Positions 37,755 through 59,173 of a DNA stretch of 64,000 nucleotides are shown here, piece by piece (within the stretch, counting starts at the first letter, position 1; each line of letters starts with the position of its first letter). The stretch covers positions 1-64,000 of the forward strand of contig SAXG01000072.1 in the NCBI GenBank assembly GCA_012932865.1, read 5' to 3'. This stretch comes from Amylostereum areolatum (Eukaryota > Basidiomycota > Agaricomycetes > Russulales > Stereaceae). The position numbers and the translations under genes are program-made. A model generated the notes under the pieces. The model made no database searches and was not told where the DNA came from. It worked only from the letters and a program-made list of their open reading frames with translations.

Positions 37755-40674
37755 ATGTCGGATGAAGGCAGCCTCCAATATCTCTCCGAAAAACTTTCCT
37801 CGCCTTCTACGGACGACGAAAAGGCGTCTGCCGCGCTCGAAGAACTAGCCGGCGCTCATACTCTCCCCGGACCAGGGGATCACAGCCCTCCAACTCTGTC
37901 CCCCGAACCACACCATCCTGACGAGCGAGAGGGCTTCGATCAACTGCTCGAACAACACAACCTCACAAAGGCGCTCTTCGCTGCCTATCAGAAGCGACTG
38001 GATTCTGTGAGCAAGCGCCAAGAAGCTAAGGACCACGTGCTCGACGCTTTGCCATGCGCCCACGTCGTCGCCGGGGAGGCTTGGTCGTGTCCGAACACCT
38101 CGGGACTCTCCGTATGCAGCAAATGTCGCCTCGTCGCGTACTGCTCAAAGGTCCGTCGGCTCCCTTCTATCGACGTACAGCGTCGACATCAGGAAAAACC
38201 TCCCTTACTAAAAATCTACTAATTAGAGGGGGACCTTCCTAATTCCCTGTTCCCGCTGCCAACCTGCAAGGCACTACGTCGACGTAGGTCCCTGTCACCC
38301 TTCTGGCCTCAACTATGTATTTGAAGTGCAAATATGAGGTCAATGTCGACGACGGTGCATCGAAATGTGTACGGGGTTTTGTGAGAATAGAGCCTGTTAG
38401 TTCACTTTAGGAAGGTCCCCCTCTAACTAGCGCTAATTTGCTGGATTTGTTGATTTTAGTAAGGGAGGTTTTTCCTGATGGAGATTGACCATATACTCAT
38501 CCAGGAATGTCAAGTGGCCCACTGGAAATTGCAGCCGTCTGGGCACAAAGGAGGTGCGCGATGATGGCATACACACTGCCCGGTGGTGTTTACTCACAGC
38601 GATGCCATAGATTGCAAAGACCCCATCCGCTCCGAATTGTGGCTACCAGCGTGGATCGAGGAGCGGCGTTTGCCTTCTTTTTTTGCCGGTTCGAATACTG
38701 GGTCTTGGGCGGAAAGCATACATCCCCTTGGCTGGGTAAAGTCGCTGTGAGCTTTCCTTCTCCACATACTTTTTCATTGTAGCCGAGTTTCGGACAGATG
38801 GGGCAACGTTCCAGCGGTAGACGTGATAAACCTTTCCAAGAACGAATTCGTGTCTGATGCAAACTTATCCGTTGCATTCGTCGGTGCGTTACAAAGTACC
38901 AGAAACATGCCTTTTAGCCTATGGACGTGTTATCTCATCCACAGCCTCGGGTGACCTACGAAATGTTGTCAAAACCGTGAACTCCCTTCCGGAAGACTAT
39001 CGCGGAGAGCTCACGATCCTCCTCAACGACCGCGACCCTTACGTTGTCTTACGAAATTTCGCTCTACTCCACTTATTGGGTTCGGTCACAGACCAACGTC
39101 GTGCAGCGGACGTCGCTCTCCATCTCTGGTATTCCAGTTTCATCCCGCAAGAATACGAGTTGCAGGTAAGATCCTCGTTTACTGCTCTCGTCCAGGGACA
39201 CCCCTCGGACGGTTTCGACTTCCCCCTCGGCGGTGGAGCTTCTTCCCTATCCGGGGTCTTTTCCCCGACGGTATACATGCGTTTCGTCGCTACGCAAACC
39301 CCGAAGTACACACTACAAGACGCGAACAAGGAGATTGGGCGCGTTCGGTCGGTGCGGCCTCTGGAATATCCATGCTCTATCTGACACCTCTCAGCTTTGC
39401 AGAATCTCGCGTCGATCTCCACCATCGCCTATATTGCCGTCTCGAACCCTCGCATCGCCTTTCGCACCTCGAATTTCGCAGATTTGGCCTAGTTCTTCCG
39501 TTCGGCGCACCGAACAAGTCGTTCAACTCTCCGAATCGCTCTTTGTTCTCTCCCGAAGGGCGTATCGTGCAAAGTGACCTGGATAACCCACTGGATTCAT
39601 GGGAGTATGTAGTAGTACCCAGTGCCCCTCTCGCCTTCATTTCCCCTCTCTAACTGTTTCGTGGCGAATGTACTCTTTAGCCCTGTCGCGGTCGTCGAAG
39701 CAGGAAGACTTCATGGGGTCCCGCGCGCCGATCTTTACGGCTGCCTCTACTTCTACCTATCGGACCAACTACGCGAGTTCCATGCGCGCCTCTCCCGCTT
39801 CCACATCAAATTCAAAATGTTCAGTGTGGATACTGTTGCACTTTCTAGCTCAATTCGCTCGGGATCGCTCTCGAAATTTGGTGTACCGGCGTCCATGCGT
39901 TTTGACCGGATCGACGCCTCCAACGTCGTCGATGCCCAGTACGTTGGGCTGGAAAAGGTATTGAAGGCGTGGGGTGGACTGTTGAGCGAGTCCCCGCACG
40001 CAACGATGGTCGCCTACTTCATGAACTGGGCCGCAGAAAACGACGGCGCACGGCCTGGAGGGGACGTTTTGGAGAAGATGTTAGGGAGGATGGAAGCCGA
40101 GGGAAAGGTGCGTGCGCTCTACCAACGTCATTCTCCACAGACTGAGGTAGCTCCGCTGTGGCATCCAGCTGCCTCTGAAAAAGGTGGCCCAAAAACTCGG
40201 ACAAGACGCGGCATTCGGTACTTATCTGGCATTTGGTTTCTTCACCGGCGTGCGAGCCTGATCCTTCGGCGTGCGCTGTACTATGTAGCTCTGGTCACCG
40301 CATCCCACCACACATTCACCGCTCTCTTCGACAATTCTCCCGCGTTCGCGGCTTTCCTGTCAAGTCTGCGCATTCAGCCGGTGCTCGAGAATATGGGCTT
40401 GAAACTCAAGGAAAACCACACGATCTCCCCTCACGTATGTCTCCGATTCGCGACTGTCGGCTGTAATGATCTCAGCTACTCACGCACGTTTAGCGATACT
40501 ATGCCCCCCTGGGTGCACCTCCGAGTGCCCTCCCAGTTTTTCCCGATGCAGAAACATGGTACCTGCGCGTACGTGGACTCACGCCTCGAGTTTGCTACCC
40601 GTCCTGACGTTCCCCAGACAAACGTAGGAGCACCCCTCTGGTCCGAACGTTATATCGAGATTTGCCGTACTTGA
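37755..40674 (+). CDS. MYND zinc finger / DUF4470 protein, copy 1
   Basis: Starts MSDEGSLQYLSEKLSSPSTD. Exon 1 is 37755-38150 and ends in the MYND finger CPNTSGLSVCSKCRLVAYCS. Exon 2 from 38505 completes it (ECQVAHWKL), followed by DCKDPIRSELWLPAWIEER. The DUF4470 domain runs WGNVPAVDVINLSKNEFVSD, then SGDLRNVVKTVNSLP, LTILLNDRDPYVVLRNFALL and HLLGSVTDQRRAADVALHLW. A long conserved C-terminal region follows (VAVVEAGRLHGVPRADLYGC; FRFDRIDAS-like; HTFTALFDNSPAFAAFLSSL), ending GAPLWSERYIEICRT at 40674. The last exon is supported because the same GTACGT donor and final exon occur in the paralog. MYND fingers bind proline-rich partners; DUF4470 has no known activity. The first intron carries a transposable element. 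Confidence 0.8.
38187..38480. mobile_element. terminal-inverted-repeat element in intron 1 of the MYND gene
   Basis: 294-base non-coding element. Its ends CATCAGGAAAAACCTCCC and GGGAGGTTTTTCCTGATG are perfect inverted repeats, and similarity extends inward through a shared AGAGGGGGACCTTCCTAA block over 55-75 bases with indels. A 14-base palindrome (CTACGTCGACGTAG, 38274-38287) is internal. The corresponding intron of the paralog is about 55 bases and lacks it. No clear target duplication beyond a GA on both sides. Confidence 0.8.
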
Positions 40675-41235
40675 CTACAGCGTGCATGGCAAGAAGTTGA
40701 TTTTTGATGGACTGGAGGCCGGGTCTTTAACGAACACTGACGAGACGAGCAGGTAGTGTTCTGTCAGACTGGTAGAATTCGTCGGGCGTTGATAGGCGTT
40801 TGCGCAAAGGCATCTATTTTGACCCGATATGGGCGAGAAAAATAACTGCATGTGATGAGCCCGGTACGCGAAGAACACTGAGTACTGAGTACTGAACAGT
40901 TACAGAAGCACCTATTCACTAGTCAACGCTTGAAGCTTGACGAATTCTACAGGCCTAGATTTTTGAGGGATCGAGCCTTTTCTCACCCACCGACGCACTA
41001 GCGTACACCGCCCCCGTGTACAAAAAAGCTCCTATCACGGGGAAAGAGGATGTAAGGTGCTTGATGCTGTGGTCGCGAGGACGAAGCGGGACGACGGCCG
41101 ATGTCACGATCAATTGAGGGAATAAACGCCTGAGCAACGTAGGTACTAAAACATGAAGGCGATGGCGAAACGACGGAAGACGCAGACACGGTACTGTACA
41201 TTCCAGTTCAAAGACGCACGGACACCCTTCGCCCG
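40675..41235. other. intergenic between convergent genes
   Basis: 3' regions of the MYND gene and S33 hydrolase 1; no gene. Contains GAGTACTGAGTACTGA at about 40878. Confidence 0.5.
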
Positions 41236-42239
41236 TCACAGGGCCAAAAACTCGCGCACGAGCTGCATGAAGCGGGGGCGCTCCTCCCAGAACGGCATGT
41301 GGCTCGAGCGCTCGAGCGTGACCCACTTGGCCTTGGGAATCTTCTCAAAGAACGGGGCGACGACGAAGTCCTGGGCGATGTCCGCGCGCCCGTTGACGAC
41401 GAAGGTCGGGACGCGGACGGTGTGCAGGCGGTCGACGATGGACCACTTGTTGAGGATCCTGCAGGAGGGGGTGAGCATGAGATGAAGGACAGTGGAGAAC
41501 GAGGGGGTGGGACTCACGGGGCGGAGGCGACGGTGGGATCGCCCTCGGGGGAGAAGACCTGGTCGAATGAGTACTGGACCTCCTTCGGCACGGGCGTGAC
41601 GGTGCAGCCGTGCTTGGCGTGGTAGACCTTGAGCGCGGCGTAGTACGCGGCGGGGTCCTTCATGCCGTTCGCCATCGCGTCCTGCACGTCCTTCGGGAAC
41701 TCCTTCAGGAGCACGCCGTTGGACTGGCCCCAGAGCGCGGAGGACGCGAGCGAGTCCGCGAGCACGAGGTGGCGCAGGCCCGCGGGCTGGCGACGGACCT
41801 CGAACTCGGAGGCGAGGATGCCGCCCCAGGAGTGGCCGAGGAGGTCGAAGCGGGCGTCGATGCGGAGGTGGGCGAGCAGGTTCGCGAGCTCGTCCGCGAA
41901 GAGGTCGATGGACCAGAACGTGGGGGGTTTGTCCTTGAGGTGGGTGGAGCGGGCGTTGCCGAGTTGGTCGTAGAAGACGACGGGGGTGGAGGGGGAGGCG
42001 GTGGCGAGGTCGGAGATGGGGAGGAGGTAGTCGTGGGAGAGGCCGGGCCCGCCGTGGAGGACGACGAGGGGGGCGCGGGTAGTGTCGGTGAGGTCGCCGA
42101 AGACCTTGTAGTAGGTTTGGAAGGTCTCGCCGTGGTAGGGGAAGGGTGCGGTGCCCTCGGCGGTGGGAGCGACGGTGGCCATGCTGGAAGCGCGGGTACG
42201 TTTGAGACGGAAGGCGGCGAGGAAGGGGAGTCTGAACAT
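41236..42239 (-). CDS. S33 alpha/beta-hydrolase, proline iminopeptidase-like, copy 1
   Basis: Two exons (41518-42239, 41236-41458) sum to 945 bases, giving 314 residues. S33 family features: oxyanion motif VVLHGGPGLSHDYLLP; nucleophile elbow LLGHSWGGILASEF (catalytic Ser); Asp in VVNGRADIAQDFVV; His in LERSSHMPFWEE. Enzymes of this family release N-terminal proline or related residues from peptides, but fungal members also include other hydrolases. Start MFRLPFLAAFRLKRTRASS (42239) is chosen; MATVAPTAEG at 42183 is an alternative that removes the hydrophobic N-terminus. Paralog of 44529-45558. It lies at the edge of the UstYa cluster and could trim a peptide product (inference). Confidence 0.88.
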
Positions 42240-43084
42240 GGGGACCGACCTAAACGAGCCTCTTCGCGGTTGTCGACGGCGAGCGGGGAGCTTTTGAGGG
42301 CGTGACGAGGGCGTGACGGGGGCGGGGGGGCAGGACCAGGCGAGGGTCAGGCGAGGCGAGGACGACGAAAGGCGTGGAGGATCGAGGCTGGCTGCTTTTA
42401 GGTATGCGTTCAGCGTGACCATTCCGATCCTGGGAACGGCGCAAACGCACCAGATAGACCGATGCGGCTTGTGCGGCCTTGTACGCGACGAGCGCGGGGT
42501 GGGGAACCCAAGCCGATCCGTACTCATTGTGCCCTCTCGAAGAGCTGCGTGTCTTTCAGCTGCCGGAGAAACGCGTCCCGTATGGTCGGTACTTAGATGG
42601 TCAGCGTGACTGCTCTGATCCTGGGAGTAGTCACTAGTCAAAGCGCACCCGAGTTCCCGATGCGAGTTGTGCGGCCTGGTATGCGATGAGCGCGGAGCGA
42701 AGAGGCATGCGAACAGAAGCCGATTCACGCTGCTTGCTGTCCTGGGGAAGCTGCCGTCCTGAGGAGCTGGAGAACCCAGCCTTGGATGCTTTCTTGGGAA
42801 ACCTCGGTCGTCTCTTTGCCGCCGGGGAAGCGTTCCATTTCGTTGGGATCGAGGGCGTGGTCGATCGAGATGATCGCTCGAAGGGAAGAGGTCCGTGTAC
42901 AAGTCCATGGCGGAGTTTCGTTTTCAGCAAAGTCCGACTCGGCAGTCTCTCGGCAACTGCCCGGCACGTGCGCCCCTTATTTTTTGGCATCAATGTCCTC
43001 CCGGAAGGCTGAAGCTGTACTGTACACGGTGTTCACAAACGCGAAAAAAACAAACAAGTCGAGCCTCCTTCATCGGCCACGCCT
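42240..43084. other. promoter region of S33 copy 1
   Basis: No gene; contains a diverged tandem repeat. Confidence 0.5.
42412..42790. repeat. two diverged tandem copies of about 190 bases
   Basis: Copies start at about 42412 and 42603. Shared words in the same order: GCGTGAC, TGATCCTGGGA (TCCGATCCTGGGA in the first), CGATGCG, TTGTGCGGCC, GAGCGCGG, AAGCCGAT, GCTGCCG. The divergence suggests an old duplication. Confidence 0.6.
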
Positions 43085-43818
43085 TCAGATGGCGTTTATG
43101 GCGCTGGCCTCGGTGTGCACAAAGTCGTCCATCTCCTTCCACTCCTCGTAGTTCTTCTCCACGTACTCCCGCACCCGCACCCAGTCCCCGCATCGGTGCG
43201 TCACCCCGCTCCCATACGCCGCCTTCGTCCTCCTCCCGTCCACGTTCCGCGCCGTGAACGCAGGCTCGAGCGACGCGTCCGCCGCGCACAGCACGTTCTG
43301 CCGCAGATACGTCAGGCAGTGCAGCGCGTGCGCCCCGTCGTGCCCCGCCCGCGACGCGTTCCGGTGCCCGTTGAACATCTTCCGGAAGCTGTTCAGGCAG
43401 TGCATCTGGTGGTACATCGACACCGCGTAGAACGCGTCCGCGTCCTCGCCCATGCGCACGAACCCGTGCCCGACCGGGATCACCGACGCCCAGTCGTTGT
43501 CGTCCTCCATCCCGTACCGGTCGCTGTCCACGATCTCGAGCGCGACCCGGTGCTCTTCGATGGGCAGCCGCACCGGGAGCCCGTTCACGACCTCGACCGT
43601 CGTCTCCGATACTGCGAATCAAAGTAATATACACGTGAGTCACACCGCCGCACCCTTTCCTCTGCACCGGCTTCGGACTTACCTGCCCCTCCCTTGGGCT
43701 CGCACAGAAAGGTGCCCAACGCGTTGAGAAGAGCGCATACGACGAGGGCCGCCAGAACGACGTGCGCGACGCGCGCAGGGATCAGATACTGTCCACGAGA
43801 CTTGCGGATGAGATACAT
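43085..43818 (-). CDS. UstYa-family (DUF3328) protein A
   Basis: Two exons (43683-43818, 43085-43611) sum to 663 bases, giving 220 residues. Type II membrane protein: short basic N-terminus (MYLIRKSRGQYLIPARVAHV) and one helix (VVLAALVVCALLNALGTFL). The lumenal domain carries both HxxHC motifs of the family: HQMHC in YHQMHCLNSFRK, and HALHC in HALHCLTYLRQNVLC. It then has the conserved SLEP and THRCGDWVRVREYVEKNYEEW. UstYa-type proteins act in the secretory pathway as oxidative cyclases of ribosomal peptides (ustiloxin, asperipin-2a) and as modifiers of cyclochlorotine. First of four such genes here; all key motif residues are present. Confidence 0.9.
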
Positions 43819-44528
43819 GGGCGGACAAGATGATGTGGGGGAGCCACGGGCAAGTCCCTCGATCCTTGTCCTTTGGGCCTTTAGTCGCGCTCCACGCGCC
43901 TCCTCTCCCCACCTGGCACCCCTACACACCCCTTCCGCGGATCGAGACCCAGTTCTCATATCAGAAACACGACAGAACGTTTCCCTCGACATGTCACCCG
44001 TAGGAAAAGCCGCTCTCCCCCAGAACGTCTCGGTCCTCCGCAACTTGGTCATGCGCGGGTTGAGGTTACTTGAGCAGCACCGTGGCGCCACCGACCTGGG
44101 CCCACGTACCTCGCCTTCCCCATTCAATCGAAGGGATCCGACGACGTCGTATCTGGGCCCCCTTCCTCCTCGATCGTGATCGAGGTCCTTTTTTGACTTT
44201 AGGGTGCGCGTTTCCCCGGATCTGCCAATCCCCCCCTCACATCTTTGTTGCCACATCACGGATTCTGCGTTCACACCTTCCTGTACCAGGGACCCGCACA
44301 GACCGATGACTCGCGCCCAAGCTTCAGGAGAAGAATCATATACTGTATTATCGGACCTGCGCCCCAACTCCCCCGCCTTGACGCCAACGCGACCCCGCGT
44401 CACGCTCCACCCGTTCGCTTTCACATGCGGAACAGCCAGTACTCGAACACAAACGTCGACCGGAAGAATCCATTCACGATCTTCCCCAAGAAACCCCGTC
44501 TGCTCGCCCCCTTCACCTTTCCGTTCCC

Positions 44529-45558
44529 TCATTCGGCCAGGAACCCTCCCACGACCTGGATGTACCGCGCCGTCTCCTCCAAGAACGGCGTGTGGCTCGA
44601 CGCGTTGAACTTGACCCAGCGCGCGCCGGGGACGCCCTGCACGAACGGCGCGACGACGAAGTCCTGCGCGAGGTCCGCCGCGCCGTTGATCACGAGCGTG
44701 GGCGCGGCGATCTCGCCGACGCGGTCCTCGATCGTCCAGCCGCCGGGCACGATCCTGCCCACGCGAATGCCGACCGTTAGCCTCGTTCCACACGAAACCG
44801 AAAAAAAAATATGGAAGGAGGGGCACTCACGGCGCGCTCGCGACGGTCGGGTCGCCGTCCGGTCCAAAGATCTGGTCGAAGGAGTACACCCACCCCTCGG
44901 GGAGGGGCCGAACGGTGCATCCGTGCACGCCGTAGAACACGTCGAGCGCCTGCTGGAACGCGCTCGGATCGGCCATGCCCCCTACGACGCCCTGCTGGAC
45001 CCACTCGGGGAACGGCTGCAGGAGCTGTCCCACGGACGTGCTCCAGAGCGCCTCGCTCGCGAGCGTGTCCGACAGCACGAGCTTGCGCAAGCCCGCGGGC
45101 TGCGTGCGCACGACGAACTCGGACCCGAGCACGCCGCCCCACGAGTGGCCGAGCAGCGCGAAGCTCCCGCCGAGGCCGTAGTGCGCGACGAGGTTGGCGA
45201 GCTCGGCGACGAAGAGGTCGATCGTCCAGAAGGACGCGGGCTTGGTGCGCAGGTGGGTCGAGCGCGCGTTCCCGATCTGGTCGTAGAAGACGATGGGGGT
45301 GCCGGTGGCCGCGGCGAGGTCGGCGATCGGGAGGAGGTAGTCGTGCGAGAGGCCCGGGCCGCCGTGGAGGACGACGAGGGGCGCGGGCGCGGCGGCGGCG
45401 GAGAGGTCGCCGAAGACCTTGGTGAAGGTTTGGAAGGTCTCGCCTTGGTACGGGAACGGGATGGTGCCCTCCGACGTCGGCGCGAGCGCGCGGGCGAAGA
45501 CGGCCATGAGCGCGAGGAGCGCGAGGAGGCTGAGAGCAGTGCGGTACGGTGCGGGCAT
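44529..45558 (-). CDS. S33 alpha/beta-hydrolase, proline iminopeptidase-like, copy 2
   Basis: Two exons (44831-45558, 44529-44754) sum to 954 bases, giving 317 residues. A real signal peptide or anchor is visible (MPAPYRTALSLLALLALMAV), unlike copy 1, so this copy is likely secreted or lumenal. Catalytic parts: VVLHGGPGLSHDYLLP, LLGHSWGGVLGSEF, INGAADLAQDFVV and NASSHTPFLEE. The intron sits at the same place as in copy 1 (after GDPTVASAP). Position between UstYa genes A and B and location in the secretory route make it a candidate peptide-trimming enzyme for the cluster (inference). Confidence 0.9.
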
Positions 45559-46245
45559 GGTAAGTAGTAGGGCGTCGCGTCCTGGGCTCGGACGGTCCTC
45601 TCGCCCCAGCCTTTTTGTGACCGTCTCGCGAGGGGAAGCTCGTTCCGGGGTGCACGCGCGGGCTAGAGCGGCAGGAGGACCCGTGCTCCCTTTTTTCGCG
45701 GGTGAGTTCGCGGCATTGAATGCGGGAAGAAGATGCGGGAAAGGGCAGCGTCGGGGTCTGGGAAGACCGCGGGGACAGCCACGGTCCTCATGCCGTATGG
45801 CAGTTTGCGCCGGACTGAATGGGCCCCTCTCTTTGCGCTTTTCGTCGCGCAGGTCGACCTTGATGCATTGACGGCCGGAAATCTGATATGTGGACAGAGT
45901 GACAGGCGCATCATGGCGTCCCGGGAGTTGACGTGGGTGGGATCCCACGCAACAATGCGAAGGTTGAACGCTTTGGAGAATTCAGGACCGGCTGGCCGTT
46001 CTGCGGGCAACGTCGAGGGCGCGAGGCGACTCTCTGCGTTTGGATGCCATGGTGGATTCGGGGTGGCGCCGTGCTCGTCGCGGGAACTGAAGCTTGAAGG
46101 TGCGTCGAGGTTCGCGTGTTCAATCGGCCATGCGAGTCTGCTGATTCGGATCTCGGCGATGTTAGTGCGTCGAACAGAGTCGGGCGGCGAGGGGAGAGTC
46201 CCCGCGTCGAGCCTCGTCCCACAACGTGAACCCGCCCTCTACACC
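45559..46245. promoter_or_regulatory. bidirectional promoter region
   Basis: 687 bases between the divergent S33 copy 2 (-) and UstYa-B (+). No gene. Shared regulation of the pair is plausible; no specific site identified. Confidence 0.4.
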
Positions 46246-46893
46246 ATGCGCTTCCAAACAGGCATCGCACTCGCGGCGTTGCTCGCCAGCTTCTCCAACC
46301 TCGCCTACATTGCCTCACACATCGACCGTGTGTTCTTCAAGGGGGCCAAGGACCCAGCGTACTGTAAGTGCGATCACATACATACGCTCGTGCCCATCGT
46401 CGTTGACGAAGTTCGATCGACTTCTGCAGCATACCACGGCCACGACTTCCCCGAGACCCTCCCCCTCCCCGACGGCGACCTCCCCCCCGTCCAACTCACG
46501 GTCGAGGAAAGCGTGCACTACCCCGCGATCGGCATCTCCGCAGACGAAGAGTGGGCCGCGCTCACCGCGGCGGGGTACCACTACGTCCGCCTGGGCCCGG
46601 ACGACCGCCTCTTCATCGTGACCATGTTCCACGAGCTGCACTGCCTGCGCATCCTCAACCTCGCGTTCTCCAAGACGCCGCCCGCCACCCGCGGTCACCT
46701 CAAGCACTGTCTCGATTACCTCCGCCAGGGCGCGCTCTGCGCCGCGGACGTCACGCTCGAGCCGGGCGATTTTGAGCAGAGGGACTTTGAGGTCGAGAGG
46801 GTGGGCGCGACGCATACGTGCCGGGATTGGAGCGCGGTCTACCCGGTCATGGACGCGAATTATTACGCGTGGCGGGATCGCACGGCCACATGA
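46246..46893 (+). CDS. UstYa-family (DUF3328) protein B
   Basis: Two exons (46246-46363, 46430-46893) sum to 582 bases, giving 193 residues. N-terminal helix (TGIALAALLASFSNLAYIA). The lumenal domain has HELHC in FHELHCLRILNLAFSK and HLKHC in HLKHCLDYLRQGALC, then AADVTLEPGD and THTCRDWSAVYPVMDANYYA. Both motif pairs are intact. It is the only UstYa gene of the cluster on the plus strand and is divergent from S33 copy 2. Its N-terminal cytosolic part is shorter than in protein A. Confidence 0.9.
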   Translation: MRFQTGIALAALLASFSNLAYIASHIDRVFFKGAKDPAYCKCDHIHTLVPIVVDEVRSTSAAYHGHDFPETLPLPDGDLPPVQLTVEESVHYPAIGISADEEWAALTAAGYHYVRLGPDDRLFIVTMFHELHCLRILNLAFSKTPPATRGHLKHCLDYLRQGALCAADVTLEPGDFEQRDFEVERVGATHTCRDWSAVYPVMDANYYAWRDRTAT

Positions 46894-47012
46894 AAGAAAG
46901 TGGGACTTGCTACTGTGAAGGTTTGGGTCCCTCTTCGATTTTTACTGTTTCGTTCGATGTCGCATGTCGCGTTCGGTTGCAGTCTCAAATAAACAAGCAT
47001 TTGCATTTCGCA

Positions 47013-47810
47013 CTACAGACGCTCTGCGGTGCCCGCCTCTCCCCGCCGTAAACTCTCCTCGTAGTTCTCCTCCGCCGCAGCGTAGACCGCGCTCCAATCC
47101 CTGCACGTGTGCGTCACCTCCGACTCCGCCTTCCGATTCCCCATGTCCGTCCTCGCGTTCTCCAGACGCAGGTCCGCGCGGCACAGCACCATCTGCCGCA
47201 CGTAGTTCATGCAATGGCGCGCCATCGCCCTCGCCGGAGGGGGCACCGTCGCCCCGGGCGAGTCGTCCGCGTAGTACGCCGCGTACGTCTCCCGCAGGAT
47301 GTCCAGGCAGCGCACCTGGTGGAACATCCCGACCGTGAACGGACGGCGCGCGCCCCCGAGCCGCACCGTCGCGCCCCCGCGCGGGAGGCTCGCGTTCCAC
47401 TCCGCACGGCCGAGGTCCGTGTCGAGCGCGTAGTGGGCGCTGTCCGAGAACGACATGTGCACGGGCGGGCCGAGGTCAAGCGGCCACTCTTGCGGGTAGT
47501 CTCGCCCGAGGTAGGCTGGACGCGCGCGCGTCGTGAACACGGTACGATCGAAGATGGAGGTGGATGGACGGGGACGCACTGTACGTCCTGCTCGCGGGAA
47601 CTGCGCGTCCGGAGGCGATGGTGAACTGGCGCGCACGAATGCAGGCCAGGACGGCGGTCGTCCCGAGGAGCAGCGCGAGCGCAAGGAATTCCGCGAGCTT
47701 GCGTAGGTCGCGTGATGCTGGTGGGGGCACATACGAGGGCGAGCCATTCAATCGGACGCTCTGAGCAACTCGGACGTGGCGAACGTGGAATCACCTTTGG
47801 GAGCTCGCAT
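47013..47810 (-). pseudogene. UstYa-family protein C, frameshifted and with degenerate motifs
   Basis: Domain exon 47013-47515: YLGRDYPQEWPLDLGPPVHM, FHQVRCLDILRETY, ARHCMNYVRQMVLCRADLRL and THTCRDWSAVYAAAEENYEE. Upstream exon 47580-47751 carries the expected helix (LAEFLALALLLGTTAVLACI), but its frame has no ATG. The likely start MRAPKGDSTFATSELLRASD (47810) runs into a stop at 47748, one base out of register with the helix frame. In addition the first motif reads HQVRC (second His replaced by Arg) and the second reads MARHC (first His replaced by Met). A one-base assembly error could explain the shift but not the motif changes; the protein is probably inactive or has changed role. Confidence 0.75.
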
Positions 47811-47886
47811 TGTGGTAGAAAGCGCGGTGAAGGACCAAGGTGGCGGGGAAGGAGGGCGCGATTAGTGGGCCCATGGGAGGTTGTGG

Positions 47887-47892
47887 TTTATA
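47887..47892 (-). promoter_or_regulatory. TATA box of UstYa-C
   Basis: TATAAA on the minus strand, about 80 bases before the candidate ATG at 47810; supports that start. Confidence 0.45.
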
Positions 47893-48136
47893 AGTTGTGC
47901 GCCAGGCTCCCAGTCCTTTCATCGGGCAAAAAAACATTTCCATCATAGCCGTGCCATTCACCATACACCATCGCGAGTGCCAAATTGAAATACATAGATT
48001 CCGCAAGCCCGAAGATCACTTTACACCCTGTAAACCCCACTACCGTTGTTTGAAGGACAAGGACGTATCCTGACCGTGCCGTGGTTAGTCACGATCGTTC
48101 GGCGGAGAAAAGCTGGAGACGAACATGCAGAGCCTC

Positions 48137-48370
48137 CTAGGCGCAGAGGGCGAGACCGGGGCCGCTGATGTCGAACGCGCGTTTGGCGACGTCTTCTGCG
48201 TCGCAGTCGACCTCCTCGACTGAAGAACAAAAAATGTGAGCCGTGGCCCAACGGCGGTCAAACGAAAACACGGAAAAACGAGATTCACCGTCGTTGGCGG
48301 GGATGGGGCTAGCGCTGGCGAGCATGGCGACGAAAAAGATAACAAAGATGGAGTTGACGAGGAAGCGCAT
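48137..48370 (-). CDS. 54-residue secreted peptide with Kex2 site; candidate RiPP precursor
   Basis: Two exons (48289-48370, 48137-48219) sum to 165 bases, giving 54 residues. A signal peptide (MRFLVNSIFVIFFVAMLASA, cut probably after ASA or ASP) is followed by an acidic spacer (VEEVDCDAEDVA), a Lys-Arg Kex2 site and the 13-residue end AFDISGPGLALCA. The intron has GTGAAT..CAG sites and keeps the frame. This signal peptide-spacer-KR-core layout is that of dikaritin-type precursors, although those have several core repeats and a Tyr; here there is one core with Phe and a penultimate Cys. It lies inside the UstYa gene cluster. Alternatives: a small secreted effector-like protein or a signalling peptide. 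The gene model is good, the function inferred. Confidence 0.7.
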   Translation of the reverse strand: MRFLVNSIFVIFFVAMLASASPIPANDGESRFSVFSFDRRWATAHIFCSSVEEVDCDAEDVAKRAFDISGPGLALCA

Positions 48371-49350
48371 GGTGAAGTCTGCAAGGCTGTGTGCGGTAGA
48401 CTCTGAGGTGACTCTGGGAGCTGAACGGCGAATCGCGGGTGATTATACGACTTTATGCGTCCCACCCCCGCGTAGTACGGACAAGAAGCGGCCACCCGGT
48501 GAAGATTCGAGCGAGGGAGGGCAGCAGGGCGCGAGCATAGCGTCCATCTACTCGGAAATCAGGCTTACGATTCGTGCAGGCCTGGCAGGGCGTATTCGGC
48601 CTCGGAGGCACGCCTGCGTCCTACGACGTACCCGTGACGGTGAGTCGGTGACAGTGGGAAAACATACCTTGCTGACGAAGAATTCAATACGAATTCGTAT
48701 CAGAACCCTTCGGTGGAATGAACATGTTTGTAGGGGATGCACGAAAAGACGGAAGACAGCCTGAGAGCGACTTCGTGGTCAAGAGACGAAGTGAGTGGAA
48801 AGTTGTAGAAGATCAGATGCGAACATAGAGGATCGGAGTTTGAATACCGCATTCGGCATTTGTGCCGATCTGAACGGTCCGTACAGCTGGGCAGGCGCTT
48901 CGTCCGTCGACCTCGCATCCACCCATCCGTTTGCCGCATATCGCTCTGACGCTCTCCAGTGCCCTCATGATCCTAGGAACACATCTGTAGGACTCAACCG
49001 GTGGTAGAAAGGCGATATAATCAGCTTGGCGCCCTTCGAAAACGGCACAAATGTAGGGGCTCTTCCGCGCTACGCTCACGGTTCATTGCGTTCTCATGTC
49101 ACAAGTTTTCCCCATAGTCTACAATTCGCTTGGCCTATCTGACACTCCGCGGGCATCTTCATCTGGATATGCGCCACCCTCGCGGCTATACCACCGAGAC
49201 CACAGCCATCTCCCGTGACGCATGATGCCTTAAAACTTCGCGACACGGCTCCTAAGCTGGCCAGCAGAGGCAGTCCAAGGAACACCGCAGGTGAGCTCTC
49301 CAAGTGCAGTCAATTCGGCTGGGACGCTCATCCGCACCCCCCAGATCGCC
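48371..49350. other. intergenic, 1 kb, no gene seen
   Basis: Divergent promoter space between the small peptide gene (-) and the small membrane protein gene (+). No further small secreted frame with a Kex2 site was found here. Confidence 0.5.
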
Positions 49351-49725
49351 ATGAAATCCGTATACACCGCCCTTCCCCACGACGAGCCAGAGACCAAGCC
49401 CTTCGTCGACTCCCCCACCGAGCTGGAGAACGCGTCGTCGGACTCTTCCGACGTGCTCTCCGCCGACGTCTATATCCTATCCACCAAGATGAAGGCCCTC
49501 GTGTACGCCCTCTGCGCCGTCGCGCTCCTCTTCTCCCTCGCCAATCTCGCCGTCGCCGTCGATCTACGCGGCAAACTCGGCGTCGAGGGCTATCACCGCG
49601 CGCTCGACGCGCTCCCGCGCCCCGACATCTTCGTCGGCCTGCCCAACCGCTCCCAGGTGCACATCACCGAGAACGAGCACCAGCACGAGCATGCGCACGA
49701 GCACGAGCACGAGCATTCGGCTTGA
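49351..49725 (+). CDS. small single-pass membrane protein with His/Glu-rich tail
   Basis: Intronless gene, 124 residues. Acidic N-terminus (MKSVYTALPHDEPETKPFVD), one helix (ALVYALCAVALLFSLANLAV), then LRGKLGVEGYHRALDALPRP, DIFVGLPNRSQVHITE and a tail of HEH-type repeats ending EHEHEHSA. The layout (acidic cytosolic N-terminus, helix, a PRPD.FVGL motif) resembles the N-terminal part of UstYa-family proteins, but the HxxHC domain is absent. It could be a stand-alone partner, for example a scaffold or metal-binding accessory; the HxH-rich tail is a plausible metal ligand. Convergent with UstYa-D. Confidence 0.65.
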   Translation: MKSVYTALPHDEPETKPFVDSPTELENASSDSSDVLSADVYILSTKMKALVYALCAVALLFSLANLAVAVDLRGKLGVEGYHRALDALPRPDIFVGLPNRSQVHITENEHQHEHAHEHEHEHSA

Positions 49726-49973
49726 TATGTAACGGCATTTCGCCGAGGTCTGCGGGGTAGGTCAACGTCCGCGTCTTGTTACGATAGTATATGGCGGGCT
49801 GATCTGCTCCTGCAGAGGCTTGCAAACGTTTGGATTGGAATGTAGTTTCGAGAGCGCGGTTCTCGTGGTGTTTGTTTGTACGATTGACGCAATCGAATTC
49901 GAGATTTTCCCAACATTCTTCTCTCATAATACATAAGTACATTGACTGAACGGCCACGGGCGGGACTCTGCGT

Positions 49974-50656
49974 TCACCCATCGACATCCCTGCCGCGCGA
50001 CGACTTCCACTCCATGTAATTCTCCTCCACATAGTCCCGCACCTGCGTCCAATCCTTGCACCGATGCGTCACCCCGACCCCCGTCACGGCGTTGGTCAAT
50101 CTTCCGTCCGGCGTGAGCTGCCTGTGCGTCGCAGGCTCGAGCGTGAGGTCCGCGTTGCACATCACCGCCTGGCGCATGTACACCAGACAGTGGTCGACGT
50201 GCCCGGTCTCCTCCGCCGACAGCCCGCGGGCGGCCTGCGCGAGGAAGTATGTCCGGAACGCGCGCAGGCAGTGCACCTGGTGGTATTGTGCGACGAGGTA
50301 GTGCGCGTCGTGCACGGGGTCATACAGGAAGCCTTCGCCCGCGGGCAGGATCGTGTCCCAGTCGCTGTCGTTCGCGTGCAGGCCCAGGCGCGGAGACTTG
50401 ATGGTCGTCATCGCGGCGGGGCGGATCGGGATCGGGAAGGGCGGGGACGACGGGTCGACGACGTCTGTAAGGTTCATAGGTCAAGAAAAAGAACGGCCGG
50501 CATGCAAGAGCGTGAAATCCGGCGCGTACGACGGGGGGTCCTGCTTGAAAGGGGCGCATAGATAGAGAGGCAAGCTATGTGCACGGCGATGGAGAGAACG
50601 AGCGCGGTGGCGAGCGCGCAGAGTAGGTGTACCGAGATGCGGACACTTCGCGCCAT
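49974..50656 (-). CDS. UstYa-family (DUF3328) protein D
   Basis: Two exons (50530-50656, 49974-50464) sum to 618 bases, giving 205 residues. N-terminal helix (LLCALATALVLSIAVHIACL). The lumenal domain starts VVDPSSPPFPIPI and has HQVHC in YHQVHCLRAFRTYF and HVDHC in HVDHCLVYMRQAVMC, then NADLTLEPAT and THRCKDWTQVRDYVEENYME. Both motif pairs are intact. The C-terminal block is closest to that of protein A (THRCGDWVRVREYVEKNYEE), suggesting A and D are the nearest pair. Confidence 0.9.
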
Positions 50657-52126
50657 GGGGGGTCTGTGCAGGGACGCTTCAGAGGCGGACGGGTAGCCCA
50701 GCTCAGGCAGAATACGACTCGAATGAAACGGAGTGAGAATCACCTGAGCTCGCACGGCGCTCGACAAAAAGCAATTGAGGACGGGGAGATCAGATTCTGA
50801 CGGCCCTGCGCCGTGTGTCAGTGTTGTACATAGGACCTGAGGTTGACGTGGGTAAGCAATGGCAGACTCCAGAGCGCGGCGCGCCAGCCTCGACATGTCG
50901 ACGAAGTTGCACTCGTCATGCCTTCAATTGGGATGCAGGCTTGCGGCCGTTTTCGTGGGATTCATCACCGCTACGCACGGACGTTCTCGAGGCCCTGGCG
51001 CCACGTCTACGGCGATGATGAGTCTCGGATTGATGATTGAGTACAGAGTGGCGGAAGATGGGAGAAGATCCATTACATGATAGTACCCAGTGGCCTCCTC
51101 GCTGCAATCAATTCATCGCGGCGTCGTATTGAAGGCACCGGCGGCGGCGGCGGAAGTGTGCGCAAGAGAGTAGAGAGATGCTACATCCTCCCGTTGTGGC
51201 GCGACGGTCGTGGCGCACGCTAGATTGTAGGTTCGGAACAAGCCGCCTTCTTGGCCCGGAGCAAGGGCTTGCTCCGAACCTAGCTAGATTGCACGCATCG
51301 GCGCAACGGTGTCCCGGTTCGACACCGACAAGCGAACGATAATTACAGATTTGAGTAACTGAAGTCTGAGTTTGCCAGCGGAGAATGAAACGGGGCCAAA
51401 AGTCGCCGGCAAGTCAGGAGATGACCGGACAATGGTCCATCGGGAACTCCCGAAGCCAGTGACGTGCCTGGGCGGACACCCAAGCTGGCGCTAAGTTGGC
51501 ATCCACATCTTGTTTATCAGAGATCCTCGGTTCCTCCTCCCATAATTCTTCTCAGAGCTTCAGCCTGTCAAAACGCGTCATCACATATGCATATGATGAT
51601 ACTGTAAACACTCATCCTGTGATACGCCACCCTCCTGACAAGTATCATTCTTTGATACTTCAACCTCCGAGTTGGCTCAGAAGGGCGTAACGTACCAATA
51701 TGTAAGTGTTCCCTCTGAAAATCAGAGGAAGAGTTCCATTCAGTAGTGCAGCGTACCCATACATGTCAAGTCTCTTGACTGGGACGGTCGCCGAAGTGCG
51801 CGCGGCGACCATTCTCCTCAGTTCTTCGTGAATCCAGAATCAGCCAGCGAGAGAGCCCAGTTGAGATGAACGAGATAAGTAGTTCACAATAAAATACAAC
51901 ATGCATTCGGAGGCACATACAAACGTACACCGCGGCCTACTACCCCGAAGCCCACATAATAAATACATTCAACCACGAAAGAAAAACCCCAGCAATTTTA
52001 CCAACGTGACCCTTGCCTTTTGAAAAAGATCCCCCACATGTAAAAAGAAAGGGAAGGAAGGAAGGAAGAGAAAAAAAGAGCGACATAACGACTCGTTCAG
52101 CATGATGGCCTACGGCGCGCCCAACT
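50657..52126. other. intergenic stretch of 1.5 kb
   Basis: Promoter of UstYa-D and 3' region of the seven-helix gene. Contains the second MITE copy; no gene. Confidence 0.5.
51228..51282. mobile_element. Mutator-type MITE, copy 2
   Basis: 55-base element with ends TAGGTTCGGAACAAG and CTTGCTCCGAACCTA. It is flanked by a perfect 9-base target duplication GCTAGATTG (51219-51227 and 51283-51291). The 3' end matches the inverted 5' end of the copy at 37378 (TAGGTTCGGAGCAAGCCCTTGCTCC). Confidence 0.8.
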
Positions 52127-53491
52127 TCAAACGGCGCCGTCCGCCTCCTTCTCGAACTGCGTGACATGGAACTCGGTCCCCACGGGGAACTCGGCCGTCT
52201 TGAGGTGGAACTCCGGGTCGCGGTTGACCTTGCGCGTGCTGCTGAACGCGGTCTTCGACGAGCCGTTCGGGAAGGACCCGCCGTTGACGCTGGCGCCCTC
52301 GGTCGCCTTGGCGTTGTTCGCGGCGAACTGCATGCCGGAGGACGACATGGTGTGTGCGCGCTGGACGGTGTCGCTCGACATGGCGTCACCGCGGGAGACG
52401 CGGATGACGATCAGCATCGGCGCGATGCACTGAAATGCGCATGGAAACGTCAGTACGAGGGGAACCAACGCGGCGCAGAGAGATGCGAGCGAGAGAAACG
52501 CACCTCGACCTGCGTCAGGAGCGGGATGAAGAGGTTCGCGGCCGTGTTCTGGATGCCGTACAGGATGATGAAGATGAACGAGAACACGCCGTAGGGCAGC
52601 GCGGACTCGACGAGCATGGACGCGATGCTGGCGTACATCTGTCCGTAGTGAGAACCCATGGCGGAGATCACCTGGTGGCGCATGTAGAGCAGGCGCGTGA
52701 CGAGCAGGATGGTGAGCACGATGCTCAGCGTCATGGACACGGACCAGTACGGGATCGAGACTTTGAGCGTGACGTTCGCGAACAGGCTCGAGGCGGGCTG
52801 GGCGGCGGCGACGACGAGGAAAACGGAGAGGACTGGAGTCGGCAGTGGATCAGCGCTGCGGGCATGGTCGAAACTCGGAGGGCTCTACTGACCGGTGGCG
52901 GCGATGTACATCAAGACGGGGATGACGAGGATGTACCAGATCCTCCAAACGACGTAGCAACGGTAGAGCTGCGAGAGAGAAGGAGAACAACGTCAGCGAG
53001 AGCACGTTCATGGCGGCGGCCCAAGCGGGAAGGCGCGAGTACCAGGAGACCGTCGGCGATGAAGGTCGCAATCATCGCTGCCGCGTTTCCGATGGTGTTG
53101 ATCGTCTGCGCCTGCTGCTCCAGGAGGTACGCGAGGGGCCCACCGGGGTAGTTGCGGAAGTCGATCCAGGCGCGCTCGCTGAAGTTGAGGTTCATGCAGA
53201 TGTTGATCGAGCCGAGCACGAAGAGCGCGCAGATCAGCGCGAGCCAGAACTTGTACTTGGGCTTCTTCTCCCGGAGTAGCTGCGTCACGCACTGATAGAA
53301 GATGGCGATGTGCATGCCTGGAAGGGAACACGAGTCCGACGGCTCAGCACGGTGGAGAAAGCGGAAAGAACCCGCAGAGATGGGAAGAACTTGCCATAGG
53401 CGATGGCGCCGATCGTGACGGCGGCGTTGTTGGCTTGCTCGAACCAGAGGAAGGCGGGAGTCTCTTGGGTTTTCCACTGCGAAGCAGACAT
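52127..53491 (-). CDS. seven-helix membrane protein, uncharacterised
   Basis: Several exons starting MSASQWKTQETPAFLWFEQA. Helical segments: AAVTIGAIAYG..HIAIFYQCV; FWLALICALFVLGSINICMN; NTIGNAAAMIATFIADGLL; IWYILVIPVLMYIAATG; a segment VFLVVAAAQP; MTLSIVLTILLVTRLLYM; ALPYGVFSFIFIILYGIQNT; and FIPLLTQVECIAPMLIVIRV. The LYRCYVVW motif after helix 3 is typical of large seven-helix families in Agaricomycetes without known ligand. The C-terminus is Ser/Thr-rich and cytosolic, ending FEKEADGAV. It is not a Ste3-type pheromone receptor. Internal splice sites were not all fixed. Confidence 0.78.
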
Positions 53492-54631
53492 TGGGAGCGT
53501 GAGAGGGGGCGTCCTAACGAGAAAAGTGGCGTTATGTCGCTGGAGGTGGACCGTGGTGGACGACGACACTTATAGCTGATAACGGACAGCGCATCACGAC
53601 TTCATCTGCTGAGCGCAATCTACAGGTCCCGAGCGTCACCGAGCTGAGCGAAAGTGGCGGTTGCGGATCGTCTCGACGCTTAGGGCCATCGAGTAACCTT
53701 CCTACCAGGAATGTCCCACCATTGACAGTTCGACCGTACCTAGGGCATCACCGAGACGCTGTGCGTTTAGTGGAGGACGGGCGAATGAACGGGAGGTAGA
53801 GCGGCCGAACCGGGAGTGGTTTCTTCGCGAATGAAGAAGCGATGAGCACGAGGGAGGTGGTCGTCGCCGGAGAATTGACGTTGGACCTGGATGTGAGGCG
53901 TAGACCGTGGTCGACGGAGACCGGAGAGAAGAAACGACAAGTCTGTTGCACTTATTCGGTCGACAGATGAGCAAGCAGACGTGCTCACCCCCACGCATTG
54001 TCATGATGGTGCGCCCAATGCACGCAGTCTACACAAAACTCGAACATCGAGGGGCGGACTCCGATGGGGCCAATACATATGACCTACAGGAAATCAGATC
54101 GTCGAATACCGCCGTGATGCAGCCTGATTCACCGATGACGAACAGGGAAAGTGCGCACGGTTTTGGGGACGCCGCTGAAGCGCTGACGACTCACGAGAAC
54201 CGAACAGATAACTGTGCCGAGCTGGAGGCCCGTCAAATACGACCATCAGCTCTCACAGAATGCCAAACAGTTTGTCGAAGACTTCGAGACTGGGAGGAAG
54301 AGGGGATCACGGGTACGAATTGGCACGGTGCGATTGAACTTTGAAGTGCCCGGGGACGGCAAACTTCGCAAGCGCTGTGACGTCACCCATCACGTAAGTG
54401 ACCCATAAGCGTGACATTTGGGTCACGAAGCCTGGCGCCCGGCGCCCTCGGCTTTCTCGCCTTGTTGAGGTTCTCGCTTTACACCCATCGATTCAATTGT
54501 TCTAGCTTTCCTGATGGCCATCTATGCACGACCAAGGTGGAAGAATTCAGTTGCTACATATTCCCTATAAGTACGTAGCCCCGCGTTCTCTTCTCTTTGG
54601 CGACTAATCAGCTCCTCCTACAGCGGACTGT
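53492..54631. other. intergenic stretch, no gene called
   Basis: Divergent promoter space. A plus-strand stretch at 54205-54408 (KYDHQLSQNAKQFVEDFETG; TVRLNFEVPGDGKLRKRCD) is protein-like but isolated. Confidence 0.45.
54566..54572 (+). promoter_or_regulatory. TATA box of the But2-like gene
   Basis: TATAAGT, 60 bases before the ATG at 54632. Confidence 0.45.
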
Positions 54632-55623
54632 ATGGGCAAAGCAGTCGAATACGTACCCCTTGCTTCGTCTTCCGAAGAGGACGTGTTCATCGGTGAGAAT
54701 GCCGGTTCGTACCACGCAGCATGTGCTCTTCTACTCGCTGACGTTGTACGCAGCTCCGCGCCCGCTTTCTGGCAGTCGCAATCGACTCGTCTTCTGGGCA
54801 TGCATCGGCGCCATCTGCTCCTCGGTGCTCTCCGTCGTCACATTCGCAAGCGCAACCCTCAGCACCTCTCCGCCTTTGGACCCTACCCGACCTATGCGCC
54901 GCCCGAGCATGTACATGAACTTCGACAGGATACCGACCAACCTGTCCACGGTTTATCCGCCCATCACGAACTTTCCCCCCGTCGTCTTGCAACTGCAGAC
55001 GTCTGACCCCAGCCGGGTGATGCGGGAGGACACTCGCGCCCACGACACCCCCCATGGCTACGTGTTCCCCGATGACAGGCATATCGTCGTTTCGACCGAG
55101 GTCAGTCATCTCATCTTCGTCTGCGCACTTACTGACAAGATCACCGAGCAGGCATCGACCGTCGTCCAGTTCCGCCATCTTGACCACGGTATGGAGCGTT
55201 GCACATTCCAGTTCTCCTTCCCTTTGACCACGGAAGGCTTCGGCCCCATCGCTACGCAACCCGGAGACGTCGACATCTGGGTGTTGGATGCCCCCGAAGA
55301 GATCTCCCCTCATGCGCCGGAATCGTGGAAGCATGCACCCAGGCGCGTCGAGCTCCTCGCCACCCTCCCGCTCTCCTCAGACGCCCCGCGCCTTTCGGAC
55401 GAATTCGCCTGTCCGTCGGGCGGTTGGACCACCTTGGAACTCGCCTGTGCCGTGTCGACACCCCGTTGTATGGTCGACTTTTGGCAGGCCCAGAGCGTTG
55501 CGCCGTCGGCTGGTACGTCCCGTTTCGATTGGCTTCGTCGGCGCTGTCTCATTGAGCGCTTCCATAGGCGCTGTTCTGGTGCAGAGGCAGTCTATTCACA
55601 CCCAAGGTGCGATGCCTCGATGA
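54632..55623 (+). CDS. type II membrane protein, But2-C-like
   Basis: Four exons (54632-54692, 54754-55100, 55152-55512, 55568-55623) sum to 825 bases, giving 274 residues. Cytosolic start MGKAVEYVPLASSSEEDVFI, one helix (LVFWACIGAICSSVLSVVTF), then MYMNFDRIPTNLSTVYPPIT, SRVMREDTRAHDTPHGYVFP, DDRHIVVSTEASTVVQFRHL and DHGMERCTFQFSFP. This pattern recalls basidiomycete proteins annotated as ubiquitin 3 binding protein But2 C-terminal domain; the assignment is from memory. Beta-rich lumenal domain; role unknown. Convergent with MYND copy 2. Confidence 0.72.
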
Positions 55624-55831
55624 ACGCGATCGCGTACGCACCTACCGGTGTCTCTTGGTGTCATGTCAATATTTCACCCCGCGTTGTACTATGCGATTGA
55701 TATAATACCGCCTTTGCTCTATGTGATGTAGCATTTTTTTGCACACGGGGGTTGTCAAACAGGCAGAGTACACTCTAGTACGCTGGTGCGGCGGCGGGCA
55801 AGAACAGGAGTTCAGGCCGTGCACGTTACGC

Positions 55832-58492: not shown

Positions 58493-59173
58493 GATGAGGA
58501 GGGCGGTTATTGGGATGGAAAGGCAGAGCACAAGGTTAAATAAAGCTTCGAGTACGGCATGGAAACTTGACCTTTTGCTTCAAGGACGCCGCGTGTCTAA
58601 GCTCTAAGATCCAGTGTCAACAGCCGCGCGTCGAGAAGCATGCTCTGCGGATACCCAAACCTTGTACAACTGCCACGAGGCTTTCCAATTCAATATGGGA
58701 GTTACTGGAACAGTGTGCGTAATGGATGCGCAGCGGTAATAGCGTTCGAGAACGAACGGTGCTTCGATGCCTGGCATACAAGTATAAACGGAAGGGGGGG
58801 GGGGACGCGAGAGTTAGTGACTTCATCATCCCACTGCAGCCTAAGTAGAATCCTGGTGCAGAAAAGTCGGAACGTCGTCGAGTATCACCCACCGCAAACT
58901 TGGCAAAGAAAAACAGCACATCCTTCTTCAACAAATGAATGGTCTGGCAGGCTTGCAAGTGGTCGACGTCAGAATGTCTACAGATGGATGCACGGATGCC
59001 AGTCCCATGTTAAGAACGGAGGAAGGAAAGCAGTGGGCCGGGTCGGGCCGGAAGGTACTCTTTTTGCTTCCGGGAACGCCGGTGTACCGGCTTGCGTCTC
59101 TTCCCCCGTCTGTTACATGTTATCCTTGGACCATCGGCAACCATAGTACTTTCAAAGTTGACCATACTTGAAC
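58493..59173. other. divergent promoter region
   Basis: Between MYND copy 2 (-) and the F-box gene (+). Contains a run of about eleven G at 58794-58804. No gene seen. Confidence 0.5.

What the first reader, a model, noticed from the sequence alone, without database searches (positions are those of the whole stretch)
41236..50656. Candidate UstYa-based peptide (RiPP-like) cluster in a basidiomycete
Seen: four DUF3328/UstYa genes (A 43085, B 46246, C 47013, D 49974), two S33 hydrolases (41236, 44529), a 54-residue secreted peptide with a Kex2 Lys-Arg site (48137) and a small membrane protein with a UstYa-like N-terminus (49351), all within 9.4 kb and with no unrelated gene between them. Known: UstYa-family proteins cyclise or oxidise ribosomal peptides in the secretory pathway after Kex2 cleavage (ustiloxin, asperipin-2a, phomopsin). 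Inference: the small peptide is the precursor and the S33 enzymes trim it. It differs from known dikaritin clusters: one core only, no Tyr, no methyltransferase, tyrosinase or transporter, and four UstYa paralogs.
Basis: partly seen in the sequence, partly recalled or inferred. Interest (0 to 1): 0.88.

Follow-up and report, generated by a model that had tools for sequence, protein, structure and literature searches.

The report
Mushroom peptide-modifying gene module, repeated
A mushroom-type fungus carries a repeated gene set that pairs one intact and one altered copper-enzyme gene with a membrane protein and a tiny secreted peptide, probably to make modified peptides that searches for repeat-bearing precursors would miss.

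Summary
In detail: four DUF3328/UstYa genes, two S33 hydrolases, a 54-residue two-exon secreted peptide with a Lys-Arg site and a small membrane protein lie where stated. The cluster is larger: a But2-like membrane protein at 54.6-55.5 kb belongs to it. The set recurs at five other non-allelic loci of this genome: a UstYa with HxxHC...HxxHC (H-type), one with HxxRC and an altered second motif (R-type), a But2-like protein and a short secreted peptide. At five of six loci the peptide has a phase-1 intron just after the signal peptide; none of 13 control 10-kb pieces holds such a gene (criteria set afterwards). Two pairs of modules look duplicated as units. R-type is kept across Agaricomycetes (32 of 38 listed homologues of an R-type query). 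Trimming by S33 enzymes is weakly supported (2 of 6 modules; one allele has an indel), and a Lys-Arg site is seen at 2 of 6. No expression, product or gene neighbourhood in a second genome could be examined. Filed as a new variant of dikaritin-like biosynthesis.

The parts
48137..48370 (-). 54-aa secreted peptide, candidate precursor: exon 1 48289-48370 (signal peptide + SPIPAND), phase-1 intron 48220-48288, exon 2 48137-48219 (acidic stretch, Lys-Arg, AFDISGPGLALCA)
   Evidence: only its two alleles found in the genome; no protein relative found
46246..46893 (+). UstYa B, H-type (HELHC...HLKHC), one intron
   Evidence: Pfam; motif
47013..47811 (-). UstYa C, R-type (HQVRC...MARHC); catalytic exon 47013 to about 47516; 5' exons tentative
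   Evidence: Pfam; motif; 38-protein family; AlphaFold model of its fragment P0001
54632..55514 (+).
   Evidence: 45-53% identical to the C1 copy; Pfam But2 reached in the C118 and C128 copies, not in this one
43085..43818 (-). UstYa A, H-type (HQMHC...HALHC), one intron
   Evidence: sister to D (100/84) and with C104 (98/89)
49974..50656 (-). UstYa D, H-type (HQVHC...HVDHC), one intron
   Evidence: motif 1 read from the translation, motif 2
49351..49725 (+). small membrane protein E (124 aa): short cytosolic part, one span, LPRPDIFVGLP motif, 8 His in the last 25 residues (topology by eye)
   Evidence: no Pfam match
44529..45560 (-). S33 hydrolase 2, proline-iminopeptidase-like, hydrophobic signal-peptide-like N-terminus; the C48 allele has an indel
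41236..42182 (-). S33 hydrolase 1, proline-iminopeptidase family

Best explanation
The locus is one copy of a biosynthetic module for ribosomal, secretory-pathway, copper-oxidised peptides (dikaritin-like). Proposed steps: (1) the 54-aa precursor enters the ER by its signal peptide; (2) a membrane-anchored pair of UstYa proteins, catalytic B with partner C, and in this copy also A and D, oxidises or cross-links residues of the C-terminal part (AFDISGPGLALCA) in the lumen; (3) the But2-like single-span protein and the His-rich small protein E assist as luminal partners, for example in assembly, substrate holding or copper supply; (4) Kex2-type cleavage after Lys-Arg releases the product, perhaps trimmed by the secreted S33 enzyme. 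Shown by sequence: the gene set, its recurrence at six loci, shared ancestry of several members between modules, the H/R split and the recurring precursor architecture. Inferred: that the peptide is the substrate, the chemistry, the partnership B-C, and the roles of But2-like, E and S33.
For: Six non-allelic module loci: C153/C48, C1, C96, C118/C144, C155/C18, C107/C176/C2. But2-like matches with E<1e-6 occur on 11 contigs, all of which also bear UstYa hits, 10 of the 11 within 5 kb; all 6 matches of the Pfam But2 model at E <= 0.01 lie at UstYa loci. Shared ancestry: H-types of C96+C118 100/100 and of C153+C1 100/98, R-types of C96+C118 100/98; But2-like C118 is closest to C96 and the window copy to C1 among the loci compared. 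Short two-exon signal-peptide gene with phase-1 intron: 5 of 6 modules, 0 of 13 control pieces, 21 of 300 surrogates; any phase 6 of 6, 4 of 13, 38 of 300. By my approximate gene extents it lies 0.3-1.5 kb from the nearest UstYa gene. Exon 1 resembles across loci (SPIPAND, TIIPADDFE, TIIPVDPED). The DUF3328 protein CctR is a copper enzyme with a luminal domain (PMC12435403, parts 1-2 of 3 read).
Against: No expression or product data. The peptides share no core, the Lys-Arg site is in 2 of 6 modules, and no homologue of the peptides was found among 5.8 billion proteins, so the precursor role rests on position and architecture in one genome. The criteria were written after seeing the candidates, and with any intron phase 4 of 13 controls also pass. 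Gene models are by eye; C96, C118 and C155 have alternative exon 2 choices and C155 a phase-0 intron. R-types of C153 and C1 are not sisters on the tree. The C18 allele lacks the peptide's first exon, so that peptide may be dispensable. The R-type copies of C176 and C2 keep only one motif histidine (HQLRC...LTRNC) and that of C107 has a stop, so that module may be decaying. The window core has no Tyr.
Confidence: 0.7

Rival explanations
1. The H/R UstYa pair and the But2-like protein form a module that modifies something else (a cell-wall or secreted protein, or a small molecule); the short secreted peptides beside it are independent small secreted proteins.
For: A DUF3328 enzyme also acts on a non-ribosomal peptide, cyclochlorotine (PMC12435403, parts 1-2 of 3). 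Peptide cores share nothing and four of six lack a dibasic site in the chosen models. R-type UstYa has many relatives elsewhere, the peptides none found.
Against: The same architecture recurs at 5-6 of 6 modules and at 0 (phase 1) or 4 (any phase) of 13 control pieces; exon 1 of C96 and C118 is alike where UstYa and But2-like genes are nearest relatives. Variable cores with conserved leaders are what precursor families show (general knowledge).
Confidence: 0.2
2. The window peptide is a linear secreted signalling or pheromone-like peptide released by Kex2, and the UstYa genes are incidental neighbours.
For: Many Kex2-derived peptides of fungi are linear (PMC9769878, passages), and only 103 of 1680 basidiomycete repeat precursors lie near DUF3328 genes (PMC7329392, passages).
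Against: Repeated linkage in six modules; the peptide gene sits between UstYa C and E-D.
Confidence: 0.07
3. Chance or artefact: the peptide is a spurious reading of non-coding DNA.
For: Short; intron is 3n and stop-free; no homologue found.
Against: 0 of 200 surrogates reach its score; no difference between alleles over its 165 coding bases, though that half of the block is 99.8% identical, so this is weak; same architecture elsewhere.
Confidence: 0.03

Closest known systems
Dikaritins (ustiloxin, phomopsin, asperipin-2a) of Ascomycota
   Same: Several membrane-anchored DUF3328/UstYa genes next to a gene for a secreted precursor; Kex2-type site in this copy
   Different: Single core instead of repeated cores; no Tyr in it; no tyrosinase match near a UstYa locus; H/R UstYa pairing and But2-like partner, neither met in the papers and passages I read
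CctR, a DUF3328 copper hydroxylase of cyclochlorotine biosynthesis
   Same: Same family; A, B and D keep the HxxHC(x)nHxxHC motif
   Different: CctR is a homodimer acting on a non-ribosomal peptide; window C lacks two of the four motif histidines
Kex2-processed repeat proteins (KEPs) of fungi
   Same: Signal peptide, propeptide, Lys-Arg, short C-terminal peptide
   Different: No repeats, so outside the KEP definition used in genome surveys
But2 C-terminal domain proteins (PF09792)
   Same: C118, C144 and C96 matches are over the family cut-off and the C128 copy is over it as a spliced protein; the window and C1 copies are homologous to these
   Different: The window copy itself does not match the Pfam model; role in this setting unknown

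Membership tests
Dikaritin RiPP cluster | DUF3328/UstYa protein with two HxxHC motifs | tested here: met
   A, B and D have both motifs; C does not (motif 1 of D read); Pfam
Dikaritin RiPP cluster | Precursor with signal peptide next to the UstYa genes | tested here: met
   signal peptide judged by hydropathy only, precursor role not shown
Dikaritin RiPP cluster | Repeated core peptides separated by Kex2 sites | tested here: not met
   one core after one Lys-Arg
Dikaritin RiPP cluster | Tyrosinase in the cluster (original definition; later definitions rest on DUF3328, PMC12048977 passages) | tested here: not met
   14 tyrosinase matches in the genome, none near a UstYa hit
Dikaritin RiPP cluster | Methyltransferase and transporter or peptidase in the cluster (original definition) | tested here: inconclusive
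   two S33 hydrolases of peptidase kinship; no methyltransferase or transporter among the genes I examined at 41.2-55.6 kb, but no family search was made for them
Dikaritin RiPP cluster | Oxidatively cyclised peptide product | not testable with these tools
   needs mass spectrometry
DUF3328 copper oxidase | HxxHC(x)nHxxHC motif | tested here: met
   met by A, B, D; not met by C (HQVRC...MARHC)
R-type UstYa subfamily (named here) | HxxRC in motif 1 and no His at the first position of motif 2 | tested here: met
   window C and 32 of 38 listed homologues including itself (the query was R-type, so the list is biased to it); R-types at 6 of 6 modules (second motif of the C107 copy read)
R-type UstYa subfamily (named here) | One clade | tested here: inconclusive
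   the label needs 2 changes on the tree, one origin is not ruled out; several long branches
Proline iminopeptidase (TIGR01250) | Score over the family cut-off | tested here: inconclusive
   S33-1 174.9 bits over 167.65; S33-2 144.1 bits under it
Kex2-processed repeat protein | Repeated peptide units | tested here: not met
   single unit

The most novel reading that the evidence does not exclude
Mushroom-forming fungi have their own class of UstYa peptides: non-repeated, hypervariable precursors with a conserved leader exon, processed by an obligate heterodimer of one intact and one half-site UstYa (HxxRC...LxxHC, keeping two of the four copper-site histidines), with a But2-like luminal partner and, in this copy, a His-rich single-span protein that hands over copper or electrons, the accessory role that the CctR authors postulated. 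Repeat-based surveys would overlook such precursors, which may explain why basidiomycete UstYa genes seem to lack substrates.
Probability: 0.35. Interest if true: 0.86.

Novelty: new variant of a known kind. Interest (0 to 1): 0.72.

Why it matters
Basidiomycete genomes can hold many UstYa genes (16 in Pleurotus by PMC8893723, passages), yet few of their repeat-type precursors lie beside such genes (103 of 1680, PMC7329392, passages). A conserved module with single-core precursors would supply missing substrates, make mushroom peptides minable by a simple rule (H/R UstYa pair + But2-like gene + phase-1-intron signal-peptide gene), and turn the H/R pair into a direct test of whether DUF3328 copper enzymes can work as heterodimers.

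Tried and rejected
Relatives of the peptide: none by protein search with the window peptide or with an alignment of six module peptides (79 candidates, none with E <= 10), and no copy beyond the two alleles in the genome. A three-exon model of the C96 peptide found only its own locus; I later used a two-exon model. A first scan for Lys-Arg peptides at other UstYa loci and one for peptides ending in Cys-x gave mostly noise; the Cys-x ending of three peptides is not general and I dropped it. S33 as a core member: rejected as weak. E as a truncated UstYa: no Pfam match and no meaningful similarity to the window But2-like protein; only an 11-residue motif is shared with the C104 protein. UstYa A against solved structures: two chance-level matches (E 0.57 and 0.69). 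Fold of the R-type fragment: no solved structure with E <= 0.001. Structure of the But2-like protein: confidence too low to use (mean pLDDT 46.7). Tyrosinase linkage: none. Of 10 rows first planned for the But2-like alignment I used 5. Of 31 UstYa matches I extracted 30 (one C95 match with stops left out), and built the tree with 18 of them (alleles and near-copies left out) plus 37 homologues. My pattern missed motif 1 of four extracted exons or fragments (both alleles of D, C95, C2); for D it is read. In one search C1 381382 and C95 were labelled 'other' for the same kind of reason; one search reads HELHC for the former. The 13 control pieces include three UstYa loci without a full module (C104, C95, C128) and the window stretch with the But2-like gene.
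Full report
WHAT IS THERE. The window is a stretch of contig C153 of a 57.1-Mb, 182-contig genome; the UstYa homologues that bear organism names are from mushroom-forming basidiomycetes. An allelic contig, C48, holds the same block at 98.1% (38,481-46,915) and 99.8% identity (46,914-61,014). All eight genes of the finding were found where stated. A, B, C and D match Pfam UstYa well. The two S33 proteins are proline-iminopeptidase-family hydrolases. The 54-residue peptide is encoded by two exons; its 69-nt intron is stop-free and a multiple of three, so retention cannot be excluded from sequence alone.

IT IS NOT CHANCE. With a score for signal-peptide-like start, acidic propeptide, dibasic site and short tail, the peptide reaches 8.19; the best of 20 other pieces reaches 4.15 and the best of 200 surrogates 3.73. 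The score was written with this peptide in mind, so the comparison shows rarity, not function.

A RECURRENT MODULE. The UstYa model gives 31 matches on 14 contigs of this genome. Reading the copper motifs of 30 of them splits them in two. H-type has HxxHC...HxxHC. R-type has HxxRC in the first motif and L, M or I in place of the first His of the second, so that two of four histidines are gone (three of four in the C176 and C2 copies, HQLRC...LTRNC; the C107 copy has a stop in this stretch). At six non-allelic loci (C153/C48; C1; C96; C118/C144; C155/C18; C107/C176/C2) one H-type and one R-type lie near each other. A further locus, C128, has a more degenerate member (HQLEC...RAQFC) with a But2-like gene and an H-type about 14 kb away.

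THE BUT2-LIKE MEMBER. Between the UstYa genes of C1 lies a single-span membrane protein with a weak But2 match (E 0.013). Searching the genome with it gave 21 matches; those with E<1e-6 fall on 11 contigs, and every one of these contigs bears UstYa hits, 10 of the 11 within 5 kb (C107 is the exception at about 12 kb). Two weaker matches (C110, C45; E 0.03 and 0.08) are not on UstYa contigs. The Pfam But2 model itself finds 6 places at E <= 0.01, all at UstYa loci, and the C118 and C128 copies pass its cut-off as spliced proteins. One multi-span membrane gene without a Pfam match (about 52.1-53.5 kb) lies between.

THE PEPTIDES. Looking through the modules I found at each a short signal-peptide gene with an intron soon after the signal peptide; at C128 I found none. 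I then fixed criteria (hydrophobic N-terminus, cleavage-like site, phase-1 donor, branch-like sequence, 40-80 codons) and ran them on one allele of each module and on controls: 5 of 6 modules hold exactly one such gene, 0 of 13 control 10-kb pieces do, and 21 of 300 surrogates do (one-sided Fisher 5/6 against 0/13, P = 0.0005). With any intron phase: 6 of 6, 4 of 13 and 38 of 300 (P = 0.008 against the controls). The criteria came after the discovery, so these numbers are optimistic. Leader exons resemble each other (SPIPAND^, TIIPADDFE^, TIIPVDPED^), while the second exons share nothing obvious. A Lys-Arg occurs in the window peptide and in that of C107 (EKR); I see none in the spliced models chosen for the others.

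SHARED ANCESTRY. In a 55-row tree (many open forks, some long branches) H-types of C96 and C118 are sisters (100/100), as are those of C153 and C1 (100/98); R-types of C96 and C118 are sisters (100/98), but those of C153 and C1 are not, the C1 one pairing with a protein of another source (P0017, 100/100). The But2-like proteins follow the H-types: C118 is closest to C96, the window copy to C1. The peptides of C96 and C118 share their leader. This suggests that modules are copied as units, clearly for C96/C118 and in part for C153/C1. Window A and D are sisters (100/84) and group with C104 (98/89), where a small membrane protein with an E-like LPxPDxxxGLP motif lies head to head with the UstYa gene. 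This window copy may therefore combine two sub-modules, B+C+But2+peptide and A/D+E; the E kinship is weak (E = 0.004 for a single comparison).

THE R-TYPE. Among 38 proteins listed for UstYa C (one is the window's own; the query being R-type biases the list), 32 are R-type, 5 H-type and one mixed; of the 32 one, P0023, has also lost the last His. Named sources of R-types include Crepidotus, Lentinus, Cerioporus, Trametes, Taiwanofungus, Laetiporus, Sparassis, Hypholoma and Coprinopsis. The loss of the two histidines is thus a widely kept state, not decay of one gene. The AlphaFold model of the R-type fragment P0001 (mean pLDDT 80.1, pTM 0.72) puts the two altered motifs on two long helices. 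By PMC12435403 (parts 1 and 2 of 3 read) the cyclochlorotine hydroxylase CctR is a homodimer with two copper ions per monomer held by HxxHC(x)nHxxHC, alanine mutants of these residues are inactive, and its authors expect an accessory protein for electrons or Cu(I). An R-type protein should therefore not form a complete site by itself. The simplest reading is a non-catalytic or half-site partner of the neighbouring H-type; this is inference, and no complex was modelled. E, with 8 His in its last 25 residues, would suit the accessory role; that is speculation.

WHAT SPEAKS AGAINST. There is no expression or product. No peptide homologue was found elsewhere, so the precursor role rests on one genome. 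One allele of the C155 module (C18) lacks the peptide's first exon and one copy at C1 is out of frame. The S33 genes are at 2 of 6 modules, the C1 copy is not the nearest relative of the window's, and the C48 allele of S33-2 carries an indel.

PRIOR KNOWLEDGE. Dikaritins are defined around DUF3328 enzymes and, usually, repeated cores (PMC12048977, passages). PMC7329392 (passages) found 103 of 1680 basidiomycete Kex2 repeat precursors near DUF3328 genes and suggested that the cyclising factor differs between the phyla or that cyclisation hardly occurs in Basidiomycota. PMC12048977 raised a single-core case for lichens as a possibility. My searches of the open PMC library listed no paper that by its title or the start of its abstract describes this H/R + But2-like module; I read passages or parts of six papers only, and most subscription papers are not held.

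VERDICT. The new content is the module, the conserved R-type and the single-core precursor candidates.

Noticed in passing
window 38942-40690 and 55816-57705: Two inverted paralogous stretches (75-76% DNA identity, seen through the allelic contig) bracket the whole UstYa/But2 block; the gene ending near 58.5 kb has a MYND finger.
   Followed up: partly
L022 (C18) against L023 (C155): The allelic alignment ends at the peptide's first exon: C155 has an intact start, the C18 allele does not.
   Followed up: partly
L021 (C1), 379101 +: A second, out-of-frame copy of the C1 peptide gene (MQSFAKLIALFA...) lies about 1 kb from the intact one.
   Followed up: no
L017 (C107), about 15739-15963 -: A second signal-peptide-like gene (MRCFMMLYTFSFLVAVLA...) beside the C107 peptide gene, perhaps a decayed copy.
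   Followed up: no
window about 46914: Identity to the allelic contig C48 steps from 98.1% to 99.8% here, as if by past recombination.
   Followed up: no
window 52100-53500 -: Multi-span membrane protein between UstYa D and the But2-like gene; no Pfam match.
   Followed up: partly
L016 (C104) 6900-8110 +: A gene that reads like a methyltransferase by eye (recalled, no family search made) beside the C104 UstYa gene.
   Followed up: no
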